Assembly: GCA_027422505.1 (NCBI GenBank)
Contig: JAPQWV010000308.1
Location: 434,001-498,000 of the forward strand
Direction of reading: 5' to 3'
Source: Craterostigma plantagineum
Taxonomy: Eukaryota > Streptophyta > Magnoliopsida > Lamiales > Linderniaceae
DNA length: 64,000 bases
Position numbers and translations under genes: made by a program. The notes beneath the pieces are model-generated. The model worked only from the letters and a program-made list of their open reading frames with translations. It ran no database searches and was not told the DNA's origin. Positions 7,776 through 55,774 of the stretch are shown here, one piece after another (the stretch's first letter is position 1; the number at the start of each line of letters is the position of its first letter).

Positions 7776-10237
7776 CACGTGGTCTCCACTTTATAAGTAC
7801 ACGTCCAAAAATCACTCATCAGTGTATTAAGCATGCAATAACCTCGTAATCATTTCTCTCGAACATCATGATTAAGCATGTGGGACCCATCTTAATCAAC
7901 TCGAATCAAATCAATATTTAAATATGGTTATCATACAATTTTAACTAAATATATACATACGATACGACCCCACGTGCATACCCACTGATCAAAATCAATC
8001 CTCGCAGAGGCAGCAACGTTACGCGACGTTACATTGTACGGACAAATATTCTTTAATAAATATAATATTAATATACTTATGATATGGTATTGATATGTAT
8101 ATATGATTATTGATTAAATAAAATCAATTCGAGTCATTATACGTATACGTACATGTGAGCGGTTTGAGGTTGTGTTGTGGTGACCTAATTAGGTTGAAAG
8201 ACTTGTGCAACAAAACATTACACGTGCGTACAATGCTGCTAGCCACGTGTGAGAATCTAACACGGGGACTATGAATGACTTAAATATGATTAGCAGCATC
8301 GAATTTAGATAATAATTGCATGATTATTCCTCACCTAATACCAACAAATCAAAATGAAAATTCAGATAAAATAAGTGAAATGAATAGATGATTGTTGATG
8401 AGGGGCCATGATCACGTGAAGACAGTAAGACATGGTACAAACAATTAAGGTAGGTCTCTTGGTGATGGGAACTATTCGAATTGGTTTGCCATGACTTTCT
8501 TTATATGATTGGGTCAATTATTATTATTCGTATTACCATTTGAATTTAGGACCACAACATTTACTACATACATGTGGACCCTTCTCAACGCCCAAAGCAA
8601 TAAATTATCTTTACATCTATTAATCTCGTTACTCTTTTTTTTTTCGGAAACGATAGCTTGTATAAATTAACAAAGACACAAGAGCTAAATAGTCCCAAGA
8701 GTCTCACCGGTACATCGCCAATAGGTAGAACAAAGGCTCACAAACGAGCACAACACAGCCCACAAAGGGGCAGAAACACTCCCACGAGGGGAGAAAATGG
8801 TCCACAAGGGACAAAAACCAACAGAAAAAAAAACTCATAATCTACGACCAAGAATTAAAGAACTTATAACAGAAAAAAGCTATTAATCTCGTTACTCAAG
8901 ATGGCCATTTCCACCATCCATTTTAGAACATTTTTTTATAAAATATTTTAGATATATGTTAAGTGATAAACTTTTGATATGTAACTAAGTTTTGTAGATC
9001 AAATTTTTGAGTGAAATCCTATGACTCGATGGACTTTTCATTTTTTTTCTAATGGCTTAATTGGGAAAAAGATTAGATAAATTTCCAAGAAATATGTCAA
9101 ATTACATAATTGCCCATATCTTGGGACAAAAAAAATACTCCCTCCAGCAACTTTATCACATAAGTTGCTGGGCACGCAAATTAATGTGAAATTATTATAA
9201 TAATATAGTAAAATAAAAAGGTAAAAAATTGTATGTTTTAACACGTCTTTTAAGAATATTTAATATTATTATATTGATTGTTTGCGATAGTTTTTTGTTA
9301 AATAAGGAAAGATGATAAAATTATTGCGTCCGAAATGGAAAAGTGTGTCAAAATTAGGGGGACGAAGGGACTAATATTGGAATTGACCCGACCATAGGGT
9401 TCTGAAATTGGACCGGAAAATGTAATGATTACATATTTATGTACTTTGGTTCTGAGGGAAATAAAATAAAATAATGATTGCAGGGATTCAATAATATCAT
9501 TGTTCTCATCATCTTGTGAAAACTCCTTGAATGTGGTGGTGACCACTGCCTTTATATGTGCCCTCGTCCTTCTTTTGACTATATGCTCCCATTATCATTT
9601 ACTCTGCTAGAAACAAAAATCTTCAATTCATTATAGGTCATAAATGAAACAACTAATATATGTACTGTATATCTAAAGTGTAAAATTGACATAACATCGA
9701 ATGAATGAAAAATATAGCAATTTGAAAATATAAGGCAAACGACAAATTGGAGTCCCAGCCCTGGCTTGTCACGTGAAGTCTCCTGAAACTTCACTTTATA
9801 TTATTTTTTACTTTCACTAAAAATATGTATTTAGATATCTTTTTCAAGTCCACGTGATGACCTCCCCACAATTCCCATAAATAATGTCGATATTTCATTT
9901 TCACATTTATTGCCTCTCTCTAAGTGTGTACGATGCGTTCTATGTGAATTATAATTATCATTATCGTACTTTTATTTAAGGAACTTTGGTCATAATTATT
10001 TTCACTAATATTTGTAGAAAGACACGTGGGCCAACCTGGTTTGCAATTTGCATTGCGACATAACGTATATATATTTATATTTTGAACACTATTTGAGATT
10101 TAAAGTGGAAGCAAATAATAGAAAAAAAAAAGAAGTGTGAAAAATGAACAAAAGAATTGCGTAAAGAGCATCCAATGAGTTTCAATGATTGTATGGCACG
10201 AGCGCACCACGTTGGCCCCACGTGTGACCGACACGTG
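7776..10237. promoter_or_regulatory. Cluster of ten CACGTG G-boxes upstream of the HD-Zip II gene
   Basis: Perfect CACGTG palindromes start at 7776, 7971, 8221, 8244, 8413, 9770, 9852, 10023, 10219 and 10232. The last two are separated by only 7 bp. In AT-rich DNA of this length about one or fewer would be expected. G-boxes bind bHLH factors such as PIFs and also bZIP factors. HD-Zip II genes of the ATHB2/HAT3/ATHB4 group are known shade-induced PIF targets, so this region may be the distal promoter of the gene starting at 11384. The function is inferred. Confidence 0.55.
8617..8897 (-). mobile_element. 5'-truncated LINE-like (or SINE-like) retroposon with 18-bp target duplication
   Basis: An 18-bp direct repeat, CTATTAATCTCGTTACTC, sits at 8617-8634 and again at 8880-8897. 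Between the copies lies about 245 bp that begins with a T-run at 8635-8644, which is a poly(A) tail on the minus strand. Long target duplications plus a tail mark target-primed reverse transcription. The minus-strand 3' end (TATACAAGC followed by a short run and the tail) resembles plant L1 LINE tails. No polymerase III boxes were identified, so a truncated LINE is preferred over a SINE. The small plus-strand open frame at 8658-8840 lies inside it and is not a gene. Confidence 0.8.
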
Positions 10238-18249: not shown

Positions 18250-18807
18250 ATGACGAAAAAGCTCACACTCATCCCCGCCCTCGCCATACTCCTAACCCTA
18301 ACCCTGACCCTAACCGTCGACTCGTGCCAGCCGAGCGGCACACTCAAGGGCAAGAAACCGCCGCCCGGTCAGTGCAATCGAGACGACAACTCAGACTGCT
18401 GCCAGCAAGGAAAATCGTACAAAACTTACAAATGTTCCCCTAAAATAACGGGCCACACGAAGGCCATACTAACCCTAAATAGCTTCGAAAAGGGCAAGGA
18501 CGGGGGTGGGCCCGCCGAGTGCGATGGAAAGTTCCATTCAGACTCTAAGCCCATCGTTGCACTTTCGACTGGGTGGTTCGAGAATAGGGCTCGGTGCCAT
18601 AAGTTCATTACGGTCCATGGAAATGGTAAGAGCGTGAAAGCTATGGTGGTCGACGAGTGCGATTCGACCGAGGGGTGCGATGCAGACCACGATTATCAGC
18701 CTCCGTGCGGTAATAATATGGTCGATGCTTCGAAGGCTGTCTGGAAAGCGTTGGGCGTTCCCGAGAGCGATTGGGGATGGATGGACGTGTATTGGTCCGA
18801 CGCTTGA
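18250..18807 (+). CDS. Kiwellin / ripening-related secreted protein
   Basis: Small secreted cysteine-rich protein of the kiwellin (ripening-related, grip22-like) family with a double-psi beta-barrel fold. Some members are apoplastic defence proteins, such as the maize kiwellin that blocks a smut chorismate mutase. It is a single exon of 185 residues. Residues 1-25 form a hydrophobic signal peptide. The mature part shows family segments including CQPSG, CCQQGKSYKTYKC, AILTLNSFEKGKDGGGP, LSTGWFENRARC, MVVDECDS, CDADHDYQPPC, and the C-terminal WGWMDVYWSDA. Length and cysteine number are normal. The signal peptide is partly encoded by CCCTAAC-like repeats (18291-18316). A decayed duplicate lies about 900 bp downstream. 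The exact partner of this member is unknown. Confidence 0.93.
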   Translation: MTKKLTLIPALAILLTLTLTLTVDSCQPSGTLKGKKPPPGQCNRDDNSDCCQQGKSYKTYKCSPKITGHTKAILTLNSFEKGKDGGGPAECDGKFHSDSKPIVALSTGWFENRARCHKFITVHGNGKSVKAMVVDECDSTEGCDADHDYQPPCGNNMVDASKAVWKALGVPESDWGWMDVYWSDA

Positions 18808-19713: not shown

Positions 19714-20202
19714 ATGAAGGAAAAACCAAGAAAGCCTAACTATTGATCATTCTCATCCTCACACTCATAACCTTAAACGTAGAGGCCCAACAATGCTCGC
19801 CGAGCGGGAAAATATTACAACACATACAAATGTTCCCCAGCTAAGATCATGGGCCACACCAAAGCAATCCTAACCCTAAATAGCTTCGAGAAGGGCAAAG
19901 ATGGGGGCGGGCCCACCGAGTGCGATGGAAAGTACCATAAAGATTAGAAGCCCGTTGTTGCCCTTTCGACTGGGTGGTTCGTAAATAGGGCTCGGTGCCA
20001 CAAGTATGTTAAGAAATTTGGCAATAATGGTAATAATAAGAGCGTTAGGGCTATGGTGGTCGACGAGTGAGATTCGACCCGAGGGTGCGATGCGGTCCAC
20101 GATTATCAGCCACCGTGCGGTAATAACATTGTCGCTGGCTCGAGGGCGGTTTGGGTAAGAAGGGTTGGGGGTTGGATGGAGATATATTGGACTGATGATT
20201 GA
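19714..20202 (+). pseudogene. Kiwellin pseudogene (tandem duplicate)
   Basis: This region is clearly homologous to the gene at 18250-18807 but cannot make the full protein. The start at 19714 runs into a stop after ten codons because of a frameshift in the signal peptide. The segment between CSPSG and the TYKC-like region is deleted. In-frame stops replace sense codons near 19945 (TAG after KD) and 20068 (TGA in the VVDEC motif), and the part before the final tryptophan-rich end is shortened. The conserved LNSFEKGKDGGGP, DYQPPC and YWTDD-like segments are still readable. It lies in the same orientation as the intact gene, so a local tandem duplication followed by decay is the simplest history. 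Confidence 0.9.
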
Positions 20203-44271: not shown

Positions 44272-44583
44272 AGATTTTTTTTTTTTGTCTGCAGATCGGA
44301 CTGGACCTATGCCCCGGGAGCACCATTCCATCATCCTTATCTAAGAATCAAATTTTATACATCGAATAAATTATTGATATATATACATATATTATATGTT
44401 GATTGCGTCACTATTGTCATGATTATCTATTAACTCAAATTTTAGGATCGACAGTCGACACTAACAAATTGTAACAAGAAGTTAACAACCAGCAATAAGC
44501 ATCATCTTCTGAAATACCAAAGACTTTTACAAATAAAAGTATAACTTGAAAAAAGTTATTTATATTTCGTTACAAATAAATTC
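44272..44583. other. 3' flank of the first cysteine-rich peptide gene
   Basis: No gene seen. A T-run lies at 44276-44286. The rest is AT-rich sequence that probably includes the 3' UTR of the minus-strand peptide gene. Confidence 0.35.
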
Positions 44584-44890
44584 TTATAACTGTGGTGGAG
44601 GACAAGGTGGTCCGAAAGGCAATTCATCACAACGATCGTCTTTCGTACGACATTTTTCTCTGCAAAACTTACAACAGAAACCCTTTGGACGGCCAACCTT
44701 ACAAGTACAGAAGAACTCTCTGTTACAACTATCGAAGCATGGATCTGAAAAACTTATGTCTTGGCGATCATCAACTGTTATTACTCTTCTTCTTCTCATC
44801 ATTGTTATCAGCCTCTGATGCAATGGAGATGAACCTTGTTAGCAATGCCAAGAAAAACACGAAGCTCATGCTTCTTCTGATCATGGCCAT
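44584..44890 (-). pseudogene. Ten-cysteine secreted peptide gene, frameshifted copy
   Basis: Paralogue of the intact gene at 46439-46729. I do not recognise the family. From the ATG at 44890 the frame encodes a signal peptide (MAMIRRSMSFVFFLALLTRF) and SEADNNDEKKK, then stops at a TGA just after a GAA/AAG-rich stretch. The mature part is open in another frame: CFDSCNREFFCTCKVG, FCCKFCREKC, and a C-terminal CDELPFGPPCPPPQL. It keeps all ten cysteines with the same spacing as the paralogue. Between matching points this copy is 10 bp longer than the paralogue, so there is a net frame change in or near the AAG repeat. It is either a recently broken gene or a sequence error. A minus-strand TATA-like box (TATAAATA) lies at 44956-44963. 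Confidence 0.72.
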
Positions 44891-45233
44891 GATAAACGAG
44901 GATGGATATGTGACTTGAGAAATATTGATCGATGAAGGTGAGGAAAAGACTCTCATATTTATAATACTATTATATTTATAATCGAAATCTTGTGGTAATA
45001 AAATGTGTTAAAAGTAGAGACAGGTTGAAAAATTTATTGATATATTTGAATCTGATTGTGTTTAATATTGGAAATCTTATGGTAATAAGTGTTCAATAGT
45101 GGCAAAGGATTAATAAAAAATTTGGCAATTTGCTCCCTCTTTTCAATTAGAAGGGTGGGACGGCTCAAACGTAAAAAGGCAAGATCCAAAATGCGACTCA
45201 AAGCCATGGCTGATTTTCATTCGAGCCTATGTA
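44891..45233. promoter_or_regulatory. Upstream region of the first cysteine-rich peptide gene
   Basis: Contains a TATA-like box on the minus strand at 44956-44963, about 70 bp before the start codon. The paralogue has one at the same distance. No gene is seen in the rest. Confidence 0.45.
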
Positions 45234-45667
45234 ACTTTAACGGGAAATTATAAAATTAGGTCACTAAGTATACATATTTTCGTTTTTGGGTCACTATGTT
45301 TGATAATTGCAAAAGTAGGTCACTAACTTTTCATGTGAAAACAATTTTGGGTCATTTTTCAATTTTAGGTCACTAAAAATATATTTTTTCGATTTTGGGT
45401 CATTAAGTTTACATTATTTTCAATTTTGGGTCACTCATTTGGTACTAATGTTATAAACATAGTGACCCAAAATTGAAAAAATCTGAACTTAGTGACCCAA
45501 AATCGGAAAAATATATTCTTAGTGGCCTAAAATTGAAAAATGACCCAAAATTGTTTTCACATGAAAAGTTAGTGACCTACTTTTGCAATTATCAAACATA
45601 GTGACCAAAAAATGAAAACTTGTATACTTAGTGACCTAATTTTATAATTTTGCCATACACTTTAACG
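45234..45667. mobile_element. MULE-type MITE with long inverted arms and 9-bp duplication
   Basis: ACTTTAACG is repeated at 45234-45242 and 45659-45667. The element between them starts GGAAATTATAAAATTAGGTC. Its right arm, on the minus strand, reads GGCAAAATTATAAAATTAGG after four extra bases. The arms (from 45245 and up to 45650) are nearly perfect inverted repeats of about 190 bp, built from GGTCACTAAGTA and TTTTGGGTCA units. It is related to the insertion in the HD-Zip gene at 12419-12739. The transcript would fold into a long hairpin. No protein is encoded. It sits between the two cysteine-rich peptide genes. Confidence 0.85.
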
Positions 45668-46438
45668 AATCAAAATAAACAAAAAGAGACAGAAAATCAA
45701 CTGAATTCATATTTTAAAACCACGCATAACATAATATAAAAATTTTAAAAGTAAATTTTTAGGAGGGCACATGCTTTTTGTTTGGAGCATTCTTGAATAT
45801 TTGACTAAACAGATGATACACACTAGTATTCTTGCACACTCAAATGGTGTGTTATAATATCATATAATAATTTAAAAGAAGAAACTGATTTATTATTAAA
45901 TTAAATGAGGAATTATAATTAACTAAAAAAGTAAGTTAATAATTAACTAAGTAAATGTAGTGATAGTTTTCTTGTAATTTTATTTAAAAAATTTTTCTAA
46001 TAGTAAGTTAATAATTTAGTAAAGATGGTTTGGCTCTCCATCGTGGGACCCGCCAAGCACATATCGATCCAATCAGCTCAAAAATGGTGTATATAATTCG
46101 ATTTGAAGCGAATATGAAGCTCGTTATTATTGACTATGAGATGAGTCCGACTTTCTAGGGGGTTAATCTTCTAGACATGAAGATGTTCATGTTTTGATTC
46201 GAACCATTACTAAATTTTTTCTCGCCAAAGATTTCATGATCCACGTATGCCTTGAATTTATACGTTGAATATTTTAGTTTATATATATTGGTTTGCGTCT
46301 TTATCATCATGGTGGTTTATTACATTGAACTCAAAAGTGTTAGGATCGACCCTAACAAATTGTAAACAAGCGCAATAGCATCTCATAAAAACCTAGGACT
46401 ATAAAATAATAGCATAACAGGATGTAATCCATTACAAA
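45668..46438. other. Intergenic DNA between the cysteine-rich peptide genes
   Basis: No gene supported. Mostly AT-rich. It should include the 3' UTR of the peptide gene at 46439. Confidence 0.4.
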
Positions 46439-46729
46439 TTATTTATAAATTGGTGGCGGACAAGGTGGCCCGAAGGGCAATTTATCACAACCATCGACAT
46501 TCTGACCACATTTCTTTCTGCAAAACTTGCAACAGAAACCCTTCAGAAGACCAACCCTACAAGTGCAGAAATACTCTTTGTTACAACTATCGAAGCATCG
46601 ATCTGAAATTTTTACGTTTTCGCCATTAACAGCTGTTACATTCTTGTTATTATTACCAGCCTCTGCTCTAATGCTTGTCATTAACAGTGCGAAGAACAAC
46701 ACCGAGCTCATGCTTCTCATAATGGCCAT
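46439..46729 (-). CDS. Small secreted ten-cysteine peptide, unknown family
   Basis: Intact member of the pair. I do not recognise the family, and the cysteine spacing does not match GASA/snakin (12 Cys) or common 8-Cys defensins. From the ATG at 46729 it gives 96 residues: a signal peptide MAIMRSMSSVLFFALLMTS, a short Asn-rich propeptide-like region, and a cysteine domain with spacing C-x3-C-x5-C-x-C-x8-CC-x2-C-x3-C-x6-C-x8-C ending GPPCPPPIYK. An upstream in-frame ATG at 46774 would add 15 residues, mostly Ile encoded by a CAT/ATG repeat, but the paralogue starts at the equivalent of 46729. A minus-strand TATA box CTATAAATA lies at 46803-46811. It is likely an apoplastic peptide, and its activity is unknown. 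Confidence 0.75.
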   Translation of the reverse strand: MAIMRSMSSVLFFALLMTSIRAEAGNNNKNVTAVNGENVKISDRCFDSCNKEYFCTCRVGLLKGFCCKFCRKKCGQNVDGCDKLPFGPPCPPPIYK

Positions 46730-47452
46730 GATGGTGGTGATGATGATGATGATGATGATATGAGATATGGACACAGTGATGTTATTGAGAAAAAGGACTA
46801 CGTATTTATAGTAATGTAATTTGAAATATTATATTTCCTTTAAAGCAATCGAAATCCTGTGGTAATAATGTTATAGTGCGAGGTTGACGTTTGATTATAT
46901 ATTTACATTTGATTGCGTAGTAGAGGACTAATTAGTGATGAGAAATATATACTTAATTAATAATTGTACAGGGATTAATAAGTAATAGTTACGAACTAAT
47001 AATATGCGATATTGATGACAATTTGCTCATTTTGTTTCCGAATTAGAAGGAAGGGCCGACTAAAACTCAAACGGGCAAGGTTTAAAATGGGTCTCAAGTT
47101 ATTTTTCATATTTAACAAAAAGAAAAACAATATTATCTATATTCTTATATATTGAGCCTAGCAATGATCAAACCGTGAAATTAGTCTGTCAATTTGATAT
47201 CTTTCATTACAATTTTATCCTTTATTTTTTTTATTTTTATTACAGTTTTAACTATTAAATTAAAATTTAAAAACTGAAAATTTAACAGTAGTTGCTAGGG
47301 GCACGTGGTTTCTTTTCGAGAATTCTTTCAAATTCGACTAAATAGATAATTCAATATGATTATCACTTGCAAAATTTGATTTTTCTTAAAGGAAATGGTC
47401 AACCTTCCTTCCATACGTGACAAGACAATGACTAATTAAAGTAGTACGTCTA
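46730..47452. other. Upstream region of the peptide gene and spacer to the F-box gene
   Basis: Holds a TATA box on the minus strand (46803-46811) and a GAT-repeat microsatellite (about 46736-46760). A diverged segment at 47140-47290 shares words with the dispersed repeat seen near 35865. No gene. Confidence 0.4.
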
Positions 47453-49370
47453 ATGTTTGACGGCAATAAATCATTAATCATAAATAAATATTCCATATTG
47501 TACGCACACCCTCATCCAAACATCCATAATATCAGAGCTATTCACATCTTTCTTAATCCCTCAAATAATCTTTCAGCGCCGCCAATTCACGACAGAGAAG
47601 AGACTGATATAACTCTAAAAATAAAAAAAGAAACCCTTCCTTCTAAATGGAAATCCAAAGAAATCGCTCGAAGCCACGCAACGAAGACACGCAACGAAGA
47701 CGGCGACCGAGAATTCCCAGATTGGTTCTTGTTCGAAGTACTCCTCCGTCTACCCTTAGACAACCTTTTCGCTTGCAAAGTCGTCTCAAAGAAATGGCTC
47801 TCCATAGCTTCGGACCCTAATTTCATCCGAGCCTACAAAAAAGCACGAAACTTTTCCCAACCACCGCCTTGGATGGTCCTATTCCTAACACCCTATAACA
47901 AAGTCAAAGACAACAAAATTCTTCCAATATTCGCGCGCAGCCCTCCCAAAAACCACCGCGAACAACTTCGCCTCCGTCTGTGGGTCCCACCTATCACAGA
48001 GCGCCTTTCCATCATAGGCGTGAGCGACGGGCTAATTCTGGCGCGCACGGCGAATTTCAACCTCTACGTGTGCAATCCCGTGACGGGGCGATGGGTTACG
48101 CCCCTCGAGGACTTCGACTCGCCGAATTCTCTACGCTGGCTAAGGCACGCGTCGGGTTTCTGTTGGTAAAAATATTGCTGATTTAAAGGCCGGATATTTC
48201 TCTAGAATCGCGTTTGGAGTTCACTTTCCAAAGACAATATTTCGTCCCGGGATAAGACTAGAGAAACTCTGTGATATCGCTCGTGAATTCAATGTCCCTG
48301 TGTCGAGTATATCTGCGTTTATTTATAACCCAAGTTCCTACCGGTTATGTCTGTTCATAATAGACATAATCCTTTCAAGGATAATGTCTGTTTGAGAACA
48401 GATATTACCTTTTGCTGCCAAGCACCTATTCGGGTATACACCCTTTCGGAGGAAGGATGGATTTGAGGGGAAAGCATGCACACCTTTTCGGTGTATGCAT
48501 ACCTTTTCGGGGCCGCCACTAGGGGCGCAGCCCCCTCGACCCCTGCTTCGTTTTGGGTTCTGACATAAAATGTTCTCCGAGCGTGCACTCCGCAGCTCCT
48601 AACCCGGATACATTTTACGTCCCAATTACACTAAAATATATAACAGTTTCCTCACGAGAGTCGACGGCGGAGACTGCGTCCTCAGAAGCTACCGAATAGT
48701 CGTCGCTCTTCAGGATGCGAAGGAGGCGATTATCTTCAGCGTTTACTATTCCGAGATCGGCGGTTGGAAAAAGCACACGGTCGAACTGCACGGCTTCGAC
48801 CATTTGCTCGAACTGCAGCCGTCGGCGGCCGTCCTGGACGGCGTCCTGCACTGGACGGACCAATCCCGAGGAAGCGTGATCGCTTACGATCCCGAGAAGT
48901 GTCCCGATCGAGTGAGGGTCATTGAGTGCCTGAACCGCCGTTATTGGGGCGTGTTGTACAACGCTATTCTATGCGCGTCGTTCGGGGACGGGTTGAGGTT
49001 CCTCGGAGAGCGTCGGGGGGTGACTCGCGGTAGGCTCGAGGGATTCGCCGTTTGGAAGCTCGTCGGCTACGGTTCCGGAGAGTGGCGCGCCGAGCGCACG
49101 GTGGAAGCGACGGATATCGCGTCGGGTTTTTCGGCGGAGATTCTGTGCTTCGATCCGTTCGACGAGGACGTGGTGTACGCGGTCGACATGCGCGACCGTT
49201 CGGTGTTTTCGTACGAGTTGAGGAGTGGAAGGGCGTCGGATTCCCTCGGAGCGGCGGCTGCGGACGACTGGGATTTTCGACTGGGGCGGGGCGCGTTTTT
49301 TTGGAGCATGGTGCTTGTCGTCCCTCCGTGGATCGTGCGAGTGGTCGAGGTGCACTTGGAGCGCCGCTGA
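47453..49370 (+). CDS. F-box protein gene interrupted by a solo LTR
   Basis: Substrate-receptor subunit of an SCF ubiquitin ligase, of the plant F-box/beta-propeller-like type. The F-box itself is readable as FPDWFLFEVLLRLPLDNLFA followed by CKVVSKKWLSIASDPNF, and downstream motifs include VSDGLILA, YVCNPVTGRW, AVLDGVLHW, VIAYDP and EILCFDPFDEDVVYAV. A 485-bp solo LTR with a GTTTC duplication (48156-48650) sits in the coding sequence. Splicing from a GT at 48166 to an AG at 48645-48646 keeps the frame and gives 478 residues. Without splicing, translation stops at 48167-48169. The start is uncertain: the only in-frame ATG before the F-box is at 47453 and gives an odd, AT-rich leader of about 75 residues, so the original start codon may be lost or sit on another exon. 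Confidence 0.75.
48156..48650. mobile_element. Solo LTR of a retrotransposon with 5-bp duplication GTTTC
   Basis: Host sequence GTTTC occurs at 48156-48160 and 48646-48650. The 485 bp between them starts TGTTGG and ends ATAACA, so it has the TG...CA termini with short inverted repeats expected of an LTR. There is no internal coding part. Joining the host sequence across it restores an uninterrupted F-box protein frame, which supports insertion into a once-continuous exon. A TATA-like ATTTATAACC lies at about 48309-48318, and CTTTTCGGTGTATGCATACC-type words are clustered at about 48485-48512. Confidence 0.88.
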
Positions 49371-49708
49371 AGTGGTTGAATTATTTTTTTTTATTTAGTT
49401 TTCAATTGTGTCGATTATGCGCTTTTATGGTACTGCGGAGAGTTGGCACCATTGTTGCTGTTTTATTTTTTTAATTTTTTTTGCGTTTAAGGTGGTATGT
49501 GGAGAGTTGCGCCTCGAATCGACTTTTGAAGGGTATACTTATTGTGCTCGAGTTTGGTTCTCGGTATTCGATTTATATCGATAAGTGTAATTAGTTATAC
49601 GATCTATCGATACGTGTAACCTTATTTGTGAATATACGACCTAGGCGAAGCCTAAGCGTTAATTACACGTTGCTAAGATTCAGTGCTAGACTTGGTGCAA
49701 TCACCAAT
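49371..49708. other. 3' flank of the F-box gene
   Basis: No gene. Includes T-rich 3' UTR-like sequence (49381-49490) and repeated CGAT-containing words (49570-49640). Confidence 0.35.
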
Positions 49709-49900
49709 ATCGTATTACTAGCGGAGCCAAGTGAGATCCGGTGGGAGCCCGACCCCACTAGAAAAAAGTGATATATGGTAAATATTAATAACATGATTAA
49801 AGTTGAAAAAAAAGCTCGATGAAAATAAAATACTAAGCGTGGTTCCAATTTGATTGGACCCCAGTAACCCAACTCTCTGCCTCCGCCCCTGATCATATTA
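49709..49900. mobile_element. Short hAT-like MITE, relative of the element at 13728
   Basis: ATCGTATTA at 49709-49717 and ATCATATTA at 49892-49900 form a target duplication with one mismatch. The body (49718-49891, 174 bp) starts CTAGCGGAGCCA and, on the minus strand, starts CAGGGGCGGAGGCAGAGAG. The GGCGGAG-type ends resemble those of the larger element at 13728. No coding capacity. Confidence 0.68.
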
Positions 49901-51721
49901 CAAATTCTCGCTGATGGTTTTCTTACTATGGCGTCAGCTGAGATTTGTTACTATGATTCTTTTTTAATGTTTGGCTCCGGATTGGCGGTTAGAACAACTT
50001 TTTACCGACACGTTACACAATTTAATAATTAAGGGTAAAATTGAAAATCATTAGTATTTTTATTGTGGAAAAAGTATAACGAAATATTTTTTTTTTTTAA
50101 AAAAAAAACAGACGGAGTATTAACCAAAGAATGATTATCTTGAAACTGCAAAATTTTACTATTCTCGTGGACCATAATTAAGTTCCAACTACATCGCCAA
50201 GCTGGAAGCATGTTGTCTTTCTTAGAGTGAAATAAGAGCAAAGGATGTCGTGCAAGCTAGACAACTGATATATCCTATGTTCCTACCCATGTAATAAAAA
50301 AAATAATGTTGTAATACTATATAATTAAATGATAGTAAGATAAAAGAAGCATGTGTTGTCCATGTGAAGTCCCCTCCCACTCTCTTGCACCACCCAAATT
50401 CTTATAAAGAATATATTATAAATATAATATAGCAAAATCTTTAACCCTTATGTGCCACATGGAGGCACGTTAAAGAGTGTATTGTATGGCTGTGATAATT
50501 AAATGAAATTATCACCGACGCTAGCTATCTATAGTTTTATTTTATTTTATTTTCCTATGTTCTGTGATGGTGTAACGTGATAACAAGTGACAATTATGGT
50601 TTGCCTGATATAAATTTAGTACAAGACAGATTGGCGCAAGACAAAAGTGATGGATTTGGTACTTCGCTTTGGAGCCATCTATCTTAGAAGTCCGAAAATA
50701 GTACATTTAAATTCGATTTATGATTGTAATTATATGCTAGTTTTTTTATATTGACGTTCGCCAAAATTCATGGGTAATTGTTAAAAAATTGCTCGTAAAA
50801 AAGTATCATTGTTACATTTATCTTTGTATTAGAGTTCAGATCAAGAAGCCATTAGTACAAATTCTCACAACCACCCTTAAATAGCGTCATTCGTGAAAAA
50901 AAAAAAAAAAAGAAGAAGAAGAATTCAGCCTAATAAATATTGGAGTAAATCTTGAAGCCTAATTTCAATCTAACATTTGGTTAAAACAATAGCTAACCAA
51001 GCACATGATAAAAATGGATAACTCACAAAAAATATAATTACCATTTTTTTGTAGTACACAATTATTAATATCAAAAAAAAAAAAAAAAGATCAAGAAAAA
51101 GCAACGTGCATGAATGCAAACGGTGGTGGAAAACAAAATCCCACATCATCATAATCACAAGCAAAATATATATGAATTAGAATCATTACACATGAAAGCA
51201 AAGCATAACACACATACACACAGTTGTAAGTTTGGACCCACTTGGTTCACATTCGCCGTTAAATCGACAGGCACATAATCACATGATTAGTATATATATT
51301 TCGATACTTCCATCAAATGCATGTAATAAGATTCAAATATTTACATGCTGTCATGCATTTTATAATTATTATTATTATTATTATCTCCCTTTTCTGTACC
51401 AACAAAAGCGTATCGACACGTTCATATAGCTTTCCCACCTTCGCAAGTCAAAAGTTTAAATTCAAGAAATGCATCTTTGCCGATTTATTACCAAAAAAAA
51501 AAAAGAAATAAATAACGATGAATATTGAAATAGATTTTCACATGCAAGTACGTAGGCTCCACTATCCCATTTGAATCAAACACGGACAAGGATGTCACAA
51601 CCATAATTCAAATGTACATGTTGGATCCAAACAAATAAAATATTAATATAAAAAAAAGGAGCTTCTTTATAAACACATATCTCCAAGAAACCTTCTTACA
51701 AAAACAAAAAAACCTCATCAA
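49901..51721 (+). other. Intergenic DNA and promoter of the cyclin gene
   Basis: No gene supported. Contains A-runs (for example 50098-50108, 50899-50911 and 51074-51088) and an ATT microsatellite (51366-51383). A TATA box TTTATAAACA at about 51666-51675 lies about 50 bp before the cyclin start codon. Confidence 0.45.
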
Positions 51722-52467
51722 ATGGCAGACTCTGAAAGCTGCCATGAAGTGATGCCTAACATCATAGCCTTCCTATCTTCACTACTACAAAGAGTGGCCC
51801 AATCGAACGATCTCAACCGTTCGTCTCAGCCTCAGAAGATCTCAGTCTTCAACGGATTAACAATGCCAACGATTTCGATCCAAAGCTACCTTGAGAGGAT
51901 ATTCAAGTACGCTAATTGCAGCCCAAGTTGTTACATTGTGGCTTACGTTTACCTCGATCGCTTTACGAAGAGACAACCTTTGCTTCCCATAAATTCTTTC
52001 AATGTCCATAGGCTTCTCATTACAAGCGTTATGCTTTCTGCTAAGTTCATGGATGACATGTAAGAATATCAAGAATTGAGTTGCCTCTCTCTCTCTCTCT
52101 CGCTCTCTCTCTTACATGTTTTTATAGAAGGTTCTTTTTCTTTTGTCTCTGCAGATACTACAACAATGCATATTATGCGAAGGTTGGGGGGATAAGCATA
52201 ACCGAGATGAACTTTCTTGAAGTCGATTTTCTATTTGGATTGGGATTTAATTTGAATGTCACGCCTGAGAATTTTCACCATTATTGTTCGTTTCTGCAAA
52301 GGGAAATGATGATGCAAGCTCCTCATATGAATGTTTCGCCGCAAGAATCATTGTTATCTCCGTACGATGAAGGTAATAAAAATGGAAGATTATCGTTATT
52401 ATCGAAAGCTCATATGTGCTTCGACGAAGATGAATCTTCCCATCAACAACAGCAACTTGCTGTTTGA
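51722..52467 (+). CDS. CYCP4;1: U/P-type cyclin (CYCU4;1, CYCP4;1 type)
   Basis: PHO80-like plant cyclin, thought to pair with CDKA and act in growth responses to phosphate, sugar or brassinosteroid. Two exons, 51722-52059 and 52155-52467, join in phase and give 216 residues. The cyclin box spans about residues 45-150 and includes the signature [47 protein letters not shown] and [22 protein letters not shown]. The last 60 residues are a variable tail ending in a Gln run. The intron after AKFMDD is where the family usually has it. The gene starts near a canonical TATA box. A CT microsatellite lies in the intron (52083-52112). Confidence 0.94.
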
Positions 52468-52902
52468 AGTCAATGAATTGAATGCATGGGTTTCTTAACT
52501 GTAGTTAGGTTAGTTGAGTAGGTTATGTTTTTATTTTAATTATCGTGATGATCTTTTTTTTTTTGTTTTTTGTTTTTGTGGGGTTTAATTTTAAACCCAT
52601 GATGGAACATTTTTTGTGCTCTAGGGTGTCTATTTGATATTGTTCTATGCAGTTTTTTAATCTTTTTTTTTTTTCCAACTTCAAATTCATTAAATACTAT
52701 CATTACACAAACGCAAATATGTAATAAATAGATTCATGTGGAGGCTTATCTGTCCGATTCGTTGGATCCAATCATCATGTCATGTGAAGTCCTGTTGATA
52801 AGGAGACATCAAAATTACATTTAGGAACAAATAATTACATGCAAAATCATTGGACTAATGTACTAAAATATATGGTGAACATATGTAAGTACAAGTGGGG
52901 TG
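52468..52902. other. 3' flank of the cyclin gene
   Basis: T-rich 3' UTR-like sequence (T-runs at 52554-52575 and 52657-52675). No gene. Confidence 0.35.
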
Positions 52903-55534: not shown

Positions 55535-55774
55535 CTTAAAAGATTCCAAGTCCTAGGCCAGCCCGCCTATTATTATTTTTATTATACACACCATCCCTTT
55601 TAAAAATAAAATCGTTCTAAGTATCTTTTCGTGTTCTCAAAAGTGAGTCGTTTTCTTAAAAGATTCCAAGTCCTAGGCCAGCCCGCCTATTATTATTTTT
55701 ATTATACACACCATCCCTTTTAAAAATAAAATCGTTCTAAGTATCTTTTCGTGTTCTCAAAAGTGAGTCGTTTT
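55535..55774. repeat. Perfect tandem duplication, 120-bp unit, two copies
   Basis: Positions 55535-55654 and 55655-55774 are identical as far as I can read. The unit begins CTTAAAAGATTCCAAGTCC and ends GAGTCGTTTT. It shows no coding content. The identity implies a very recent duplication or an assembly artefact. Confidence 0.95.

What the first reader, a model, noticed from the sequence alone, without database searches (positions are those of the whole stretch)
48156..48650. Solo LTR inside an F-box coding exon that could be spliced out as a new intron
Seen: host pentamer GTTTC on both sides, a 485-bp insert with TG...CA ends, and an F-box protein frame that is continuous if the insert and one pentamer are removed. 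Also seen: a GT (48166) six bases into the LTR and an AG made from the last A of the LTR plus the first G of the duplicated host pentamer (48645-48646). Joining these gives an in-frame mRNA that adds only three residues (Cys-Cys-Phe). So the retrotransposon end itself supplies both splice sites. If it is not spliced, the protein stops right after the F-box half. Such intron birth by an LTR is seldom caught so cleanly.
Basis: partly seen in the sequence, partly recalled or inferred. Interest (0 to 1): 0.85.

Follow-up and report, generated by a model that had tools for sequence, protein, structure and literature searches.

The report
Solo LTR in broken F-box gene
A leftover end of a jumping gene sits inside one plant copy of an F-box gene that is also broken near its start, so it is more likely ordinary gene decay than the birth of a useful new intron, although it could in principle be spliced out.

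Summary
It is a solo LTR of a Ty1-copia family, antisense to the gene. Four syntenic copies (C185, C1, C8, C79) show the empty site, one GTTTC and no intron; a fifth (C452) lost that part.

The intron-birth reading is weakened. All five other copies keep the ATG matching 47647, but here a private 13-bp tandem duplication (47676-47701) puts that ATG out of frame with the F-box, so splicing the LTR would not restore the protein from its own start. The three ~97% copies (window, C452, C185) are each broken differently; the three more distant ones have full-length frames. The splice signals are chance-like. LTR/Copia elements acting as introns in plants are already published. No RNA evidence was available.

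The parts
48156..48160 (+). target-site duplication, copy 1 (GTTTC)
   Evidence: single GTTTC in the four copies that keep the site
48161..48645 (-). solo LTR, 485 bp, Ty1-copia family; its own sense strand is the minus strand, i.e. antisense to the F-box gene
   Evidence: 45 listed family matches in the genome, 40 of 588 candidates scored; 12 distinct perfect 5-bp TSDs in 15 of the 30 loci read; polypurine tract beside the LTR on the antisense side in 6 of 10 loci printed; copia domains on the minus strand relative to this LTR orientation
48646..48650 (+). target-site duplication, copy 2 (GTTTC)
48166..48646 (+). candidate intron of 481 nt (TTG|GTAAAA ... AACAG|TTTC); net +9 nt in the mRNA
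   Evidence: splicing itself not tested
48167..48169 (+). TAA stop met in the F-box frame if the LTR is retained
47647..47820 (+). conserved start ATG and the 57-codon frameshifted ORF that now follows it
   Evidence: ATG in all five other copies; 406, 406 and 403-aa ORFs in C1, C8, C79
47676..47701 (+). perfect 13-bp tandem duplication (2 x ACGCAACGAAGAC), a frameshift not present in the five other copies
47648..48160 (+). F-box gene, 5' part in the F-box frame; PF00646 match about 47729-47827
48651..49370 (+). F-box gene, 3' part; At3g26010-like beta-propeller (PF24750)
48322..48327 (-). TATAAA on the LTR's own sense strand, about 160 bp from the LTR 3' end: possible LTR promoter, would read into the 5' half of the F-box gene on the minus strand
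   Evidence: function inferred
48434..48510 (-). three 16-nt repeats upstream of that TATA box (element sense), possible U3 repeats
   Evidence: function inferred

Best explanation
A Ty1-copia retrotransposon inserted antisense into the single coding exon of one of several syntenic (homoeologous or haplotypic) copies of an F-box/At3g26010-like gene and was reduced to a solo LTR by LTR-LTR recombination. The same copy carries an independent 13-bp frameshifting duplication just after its start codon, so it is most likely a decaying, redundant copy. Any splicing from GT 48166 to AG 48646 would be incidental use of cryptic sites and would not restore the F-box protein from its native ATG. Shown: the insertion, the empty sites, the family, the orientation, the frameshift and the full-length frames elsewhere. 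Inferred: solo-LTR formation by recombination, redundancy, and lack of function. The order of LTR and duplication is unknown.
For: Empty site with a single GTTTC in C185, C1, C8 and C79, and no LTR hit (E 1e-5) in the stretches fetched around the five other copies, L045-L050. Intronless ORFs of 406, 406 and 403 aa in C1, C8, C79 from the ATG matching 47647. The 13-bp duplication is absent from the five other copies (C452 by its reading frame, the other four by alignment). Sister copies are broken otherwise: C452 lacks window 48116-50021; C185 has a 4-nt deletion after the ATG (31-aa frame) and a deletion of about 130 bp. The frame from the ATG matching 47453 is interrupted in C452, C1, C8 and C79, and its GC3 here is 0.31 against 0.61-0.75 in the gene. 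Family: 45 listed LTR matches, copia domains between two LTR matches on C75. Terminal branch of this LTR 0.018.
Against: The frame from ATG 47453 is open into the F-box (1.85% of shuffles are as open) and is also open at the same place in C185, so an N-terminally extended product is not excluded; nor is a propeller-only product from the in-frame ATG 47873. Apart from the duplication and the LTR the F-box frame has no stop over 410 codons, though at this age 0 stops is expected 43% of the time without selection. dN/dS of this copy to the four others compared is 0.46-0.61, not 1. The 'intact' copies are not shown to be functional: C1 against C8 has dN/dS 1.52 on 2 synonymous and 10 nonsynonymous differences, and C1 or C8 against C79 has 0.66-0.69. 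The 13-bp duplication could be an assembly error; raw reads were not available.
Confidence: 0.83

Rival explanations
1. Intron birth: the LTR is efficiently removed at 48166/48646 and the gene still makes an F-box protein with three extra residues, starting at ATG 47453 or a non-ATG codon.
For: GT-AG ends, CAG acceptor, frame kept; the LTR is AT-richer (44% GC) than the exon parts (52% and 61%), as plant introns are (recalled); open frame from 47453; published precedents for LTR/Copia elements acting as introns in plant exons (PMC9241368, passages; PMC12112155, sections).
Against: Native start frameshifted; the upstream frame is interrupted in four of the five other copies; the donor matches 5 of 9 positions of a recalled consensus, a score reached by 25% of the 3284 GTs in the window; few pyrimidines before the acceptor; chance gives similar pairs.
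Confidence: 0.07
2. If transcribed, the RNA is spliced at other junctions, for example from GT 48166 to the host AG at 48739, or ends in the LTR, giving altered or truncated RNAs.
For: 48166/48739 ranks first and 48166/48646 third of the 14 frame-restoring pairs in a crude score; the former also restores the frame, losing 28 residues. ONSEN insertions often gave truncated transcripts (PMC8501995, table passage; PMC12112155, section 2.3).
Against: The ranking is crude and uses a recalled consensus; no RNA data. Not exclusive of the best explanation.
Confidence: 0.25
3. A version of the best explanation: the insertion came first and silenced the copy, and the 13-bp duplication followed by neutral decay.
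For: The duplication is perfect, hence young; the LTR branch of 0.018 leaves time for an indel.
Against: Equally compatible with the duplication first; C185 decayed without the LTR, and C452 has no LTR in the stretches fetched.
Confidence: 0.4

Closest known systems
LTR/Copia insertions acting as new introns in Brassica rapa exons (BraA07g030180.3.1C, BrFLOR1.2; PMC9241368, abstract and passages seen)
   Same: Copia element inside a coding exon, described as a new intron
   Different: Those are 4.7-4.8 kb elements; here a 485-bp solo LTR in a copy with a separate frameshift and no RNA data
ONSEN/ATCOPIA78 exonic intronization in Arabidopsis (PMC12112155, abstract, passages and sections 2.3 and 3.4 read)
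   Same: Copia element in an exon spliced out; the authors suggest that the LTRs may hold splice sites
   Different: Full-length element, shown by cDNA; the gene is AT5G32415 in the results section and AT4G34215 in the discussion; the sections read do not tie the splice sites to the TG...CA/TSD junction
Outlaw TRIM in exon 2 of Bassia scoparia AUX/IAA16 (PMC12277486, abstract and passages seen)
   Same: LTR element with 5-bp TSD in an exon; splicing at a GT-AG pair changes a few residues and keeps a protein
   Different: 3466-bp TRIM; the last 19 bases of the insertion stay in the mRNA and replace 16 bases of the exon; resistance-causing, expressed allele
Introners (PMC9860276, passages seen)
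   Same: Splice site carried by the element and partner site taken from the TSD; some families add whole codons (12 bp in Aureococcus)
   Different: Many-copy intron families with DNA-transposon features in part, not found in land plants in that study; here one site, no transcript
SMART small LTR elements in grasses (PMC3281118, passages and sections 9 and 16 read)
   Same: LTR elements and solo LTRs within genes
   Different: In its Table 3 solo LTRs lie in introns, flanks or elsewhere, none in exons
New intron after a TE insertion in the Culex cpm1 gene (as told in PMC3501640, passage seen)
   Same: TE in coding sequence creates a new intron
   Different: There the insertion unmasks donor and acceptor sites of the host gene

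Membership tests
Ty1-copia solo LTR | TG...CA ends and 5-bp target-site duplication | tested here: met
Ty1-copia solo LTR | no internal region or second LTR at the site | tested here: met
   one copy in the window; host exon on both sides
Ty1-copia solo LTR | related LTRs flank a copia coding region with integrase before reverse transcriptase | tested here: met
   between two LTR matches on C75: L032 holds gag, zinc knuckle, GAG-pre-integrase, rve (28.0 bits, below its cut-off of 32.6) and SH3-like; L031, the next piece in element sense, holds RVT_2; pairing of the two LTRs by TSD was not checked
Ty1-copia solo LTR | polypurine tract abutting the 3' LTR | tested here: met
   ...AATGGTGGAGGAT|TGTTATATA in 6 of the 10 loci printed (L010-L013, L026, L027)
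Ty1-copia solo LTR | tRNA primer binding site after the 5' LTR | tested here: inconclusive
   shared ATCAAAGACAATATT after the LTR in L008 and L028; no match to the usual initiator-Met site as recalled
Spliceosomal intron | GT...AG ends with the local frame kept | tested here: met
Spliceosomal intron | good donor, branch point and U-rich tract | tested here: inconclusive
   donor 5 of 9; acceptor context TAAAATATATAACAG is poor in pyrimidines; branch point not scored; consensus recalled
Spliceosomal intron | removed from transcripts | not testable with these tools
   no RNA data
Functional F-box gene | F-box domain plus propeller in one open frame from the native start codon | tested here: not met
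   ATG 47647 leads to a 57-aa frame
Introner | same element present as intron in many genes | tested here: inconclusive
   1 of 16 solo-LTR loci examined, this one, crosses a frame longer than 127 codons at the empty site; short exons and splicing elsewhere not assessed

The most novel reading that the evidence does not exclude
In antisense orientation this copia LTR family is a pre-packaged intron: the tip TGTTG|GTAA is a donor (20 of 30 LTR loci read, some of them duplicates of one site) and the CA end plus any target beginning with G makes a CAG acceptor, so excision leaves 9 nt (5 LTR + 4 TSD) and keeps the frame. Of 1108 positions in this gene's coding sequence 328 begin with G and 311 would give a stop-free join. 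Exonic insertions of the family could then often be tolerated, and this locus would be one of them.
Probability: 0.1. Interest if true: 0.55.

Novelty: new member of a known kind. Interest (0 to 1): 0.2.

Why it matters
If transcripts showed clean removal, it would be a young case of an LTR acting as an intron, with the empty site present in sister copies of the same genome, and the arithmetic (5-bp TSD plus a 5-nt tip gives a net of nine) would predict which insertions of this family are survivable. As it stands it mainly shows why a reading frame restored on paper must be checked from the start codon and against sister copies: this copy carries two independent breaks.

Tried and rejected
Protein search for relatives: 7992 candidates scored, none at E <= 0.001; I take this to mean that the collection holds few or no plant F-box proteins, so it says nothing about the gene. 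Solved structures, 3' half only: none. Rfam at gathering threshold: none. tRNAs: none. 29-nt LTR tip, exact, in viral contigs: none. The first frame-restoring count gave 0 because of a wrong end coordinate, corrected. A script that assumed one orientation failed and was redone. Considered and rejected: a pre-existing intron with unrelated sequence (the four copies that keep the site have none); ATG 47453 as the native start, though not excluded as a present-day start; the open 3' half as proof of selection. Selection on this copy alone could not be separated: dN/dS 0.61 to C185 on 7.5 synonymous and 14.5 nonsynonymous differences. One abstract (PMC5659011) was read and not used: its TGTT and AACA names mean something else.

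Rows dropped: of 45 match rows, 30 had loci and were read; of the other 15, three are second pieces of LTRs that were read and 12 are further rows not read. One search used 16 of 30 loci: the 15 with a perfect TSD and L019 (4 of 5). One search has 19 rows: own, six rows for the five close copies, and 12 short rows (72-81% over about 100-125 bases; other F-box genes, presumably) not followed; one search has 11 rows: own, four close copies, six weak rows not followed. C452 was left out of the codon comparison because half its gene is gone, and that comparison uses codons from 47702 on (342-388 codons).

Full report
The insertion. The window holds GTTTC-[TGTTGGTAAAAATATT...ACTAAAATATATAACA]-GTTTC at 48156-48650, with a 485-bp insert. 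Leaving out the insert and one pentamer gives one frame from 47648 to 49370 with an F-box (PF00646) and an At3g26010-like propeller (PF24750). The propeller match rises from 41.5 bits (3' half alone) to 65.9 bits when the halves are joined, so they are one gene.

What the insert is. The host genome (1.71 Gb, 6262 contigs, unnamed; a plant by gene content; window = C308:434001-498000) has 45 listed matches to the LTR; only 40 of 588 candidates were scored, so this is a lower bound. Of the 30 loci read, 15 have one LTR between perfect 5-bp TSDs, 12 distinct TSDs in all. Two pieces between two LTR matches on C75 encode copia gag, zinc knuckle, GAG-pre-integrase, integrase core (below its cut-off) and, in the next piece, RVT_2, on the minus strand. 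The insert is therefore a solo LTR of a Ty1-copia family lying antisense to the F-box gene. On its own strand it has a TATA box at 48327-48322 with three 16-nt repeats upstream of it; a promoter reading back into the 5' half of the gene is possible (inference).

Empty sites. Searching with the two gene halves finds five other close copies. They are colinear with the window over much of the 10 to 20 kb fetched around each: C452 and C185 at about 93-98% by segment, C1, C8 and C79 at about 80-90% by segment; over the aligned gene region this copy is 98.1% identical to C185 and 90.7-92.1% to C1, C8 and C79. This looks like polyploidy or uncollapsed haplotypes (inference). C185, C1, C8 and C79 carry the uninterrupted exon with one GTTTC, no LTR and no intron. 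C452 lacks window 48116-50021, so the site is absent there. Among these six copies the insertion is private to the window copy. Its terminal branch in an LTR tree of 30 loci is 0.018, about 1.4-2.6 million years at 1.3e-8 (recalled) to 7e-9 (quoted per generation in PMC12277486, passage) substitutions per site and year, one generation a year assumed; rough, and an upper bound if closer copies were missed.

The gene is broken in a second place. All five other copies have the start codon that corresponds to ATG 47647. In C1, C8 and C79 it opens intronless frames of 406, 406 and 403 aa, and in C452 MEIQRNRSKPRNEDGDREF... runs in frame into the F-box. In the window copy a perfect 13-bp tandem duplication at 47676-47701, absent from the five others, shifts the frame, so that ATG 47647 gives 57 residues and a stop. 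The nearest upstream ATG in the F-box frame, 47453, opens a frame that is interrupted in C452, C1, C8 and C79 and stays open in C185; its GC3 is 0.31 against 0.61-0.75 in the gene, though only 1.85% of shuffles are as open. C185 is broken by a 4-nt deletion after the ATG (31-aa frame) and a deletion of about 130 bp. So 3 of 3 copies of the close group are broken in three different ways and 3 of 3 more distant copies have full-length frames. This is the pattern of a redundant copy in decay.

Limits of that argument. The absence of other stops is not evidence of function: at K = 0.018 no stop is expected 43% of the time without selection. dN/dS of the window copy is 0.46-0.61 against the four others compared, which mixes time before and after decay. 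The full-length copies are not proven functional: C1 against C8 has 10 nonsynonymous and 2 synonymous differences. The duplication rests on the assembly.

The splice sites. GT 48166 and AG 48645-48646 exist and the join is in frame (+9 nt). This is built in: five LTR bases plus the last four of a five-base TSD make nine, and an LTR that ends in CA makes CAG in front of a G. Of 1108 positions in this coding sequence 328 begin with G and 311 would allow a stop-free join. Of 1000 shuffled LTRs with the same ends, 328 give an in-frame donor within 30 bp paired with the junction AG, and 101 a donor of at least the same score. The donor TTG|GTAAAA matches 5 of 9 positions of the recalled consensus; 25% of all 3284 GTs in the window do as well or better. 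In 11 of the 30 LTR loci the tip reads GTAAG, a better donor than this one by that consensus (loci partly duplicates), so there is no sign that this copy was tuned for splicing. L015 (TSD GAAAC) has the same donor and a G-first target, with no frame longer than 77 codons across its empty site, so the arrangement is not special to the F-box gene. The pair 48166/48739 scores higher in my crude ranking.

Precedents. LTR/Copia insertions acting as introns in plant exons are reported in Brassica rapa (PMC9241368, abstract and passages), in Arabidopsis for ONSEN (PMC12112155, abstract, passages and two sections) and, as a TRIM with altered splicing, in Bassia scoparia (PMC12277486, abstract and passages). 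Introners show TSD-supplied splice sites and added codons, but that study found none in land plants (PMC9860276, passages). Searches for 'solo LTR' with 'intron gain', 'novel intron' or 'new intron' listed three papers in all; in the passages seen of each, none describes a solo LTR serving as an intron in a coding exon. That library holds only open-licence papers, so this is weak evidence of absence.

Verdict. The proposed intron birth is possible as RNA biology but unlikely to matter for this gene, because the coding frame is already broken upstream of the LTR. Without RNA the splicing itself cannot be decided.

Noticed in passing
window 45245-45650: A hairpin-forming insert with 185-nt arms (92% complementary), MITE-like, missing from the syntenic copies C185, C1, C8 and C79 and largely missing from C452.
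   Followed up: partly
L045 (C452), about 9035-9172: In C452 window 48116-50021 (the 3' half of the F-box gene and beyond) is replaced by about 140 bp of other sequence.
   Followed up: partly
window about 44400-52500 against C452, C185, C1, C8, C79: Six syntenic copies of the region in one assembly, in a close group of three and a more distant group of three: probably a polyploid or uncollapsed haplotypes.
   Followed up: partly
window 44578-44780 and 46436-46638: Two copies (80% alike) of a sequence that, at 46439-46774 on the minus strand, encodes a small cysteine-rich protein with a hydrophobic start.
   Followed up: no
window 18440-18744 and 19841-20154: Tandem pair of similar sequences (84-85% alike); the first lies in an open 185-aa kiwellin (KWL1) frame.
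   Followed up: no
L008 and L028, inner side of the LTR: The stretch after the 5' LTR of this copia family does not look like the usual initiator-Met primer binding site as recalled.
   Followed up: no
window 55535-55774: A perfect 120-bp tandem duplication.
   Followed up: no
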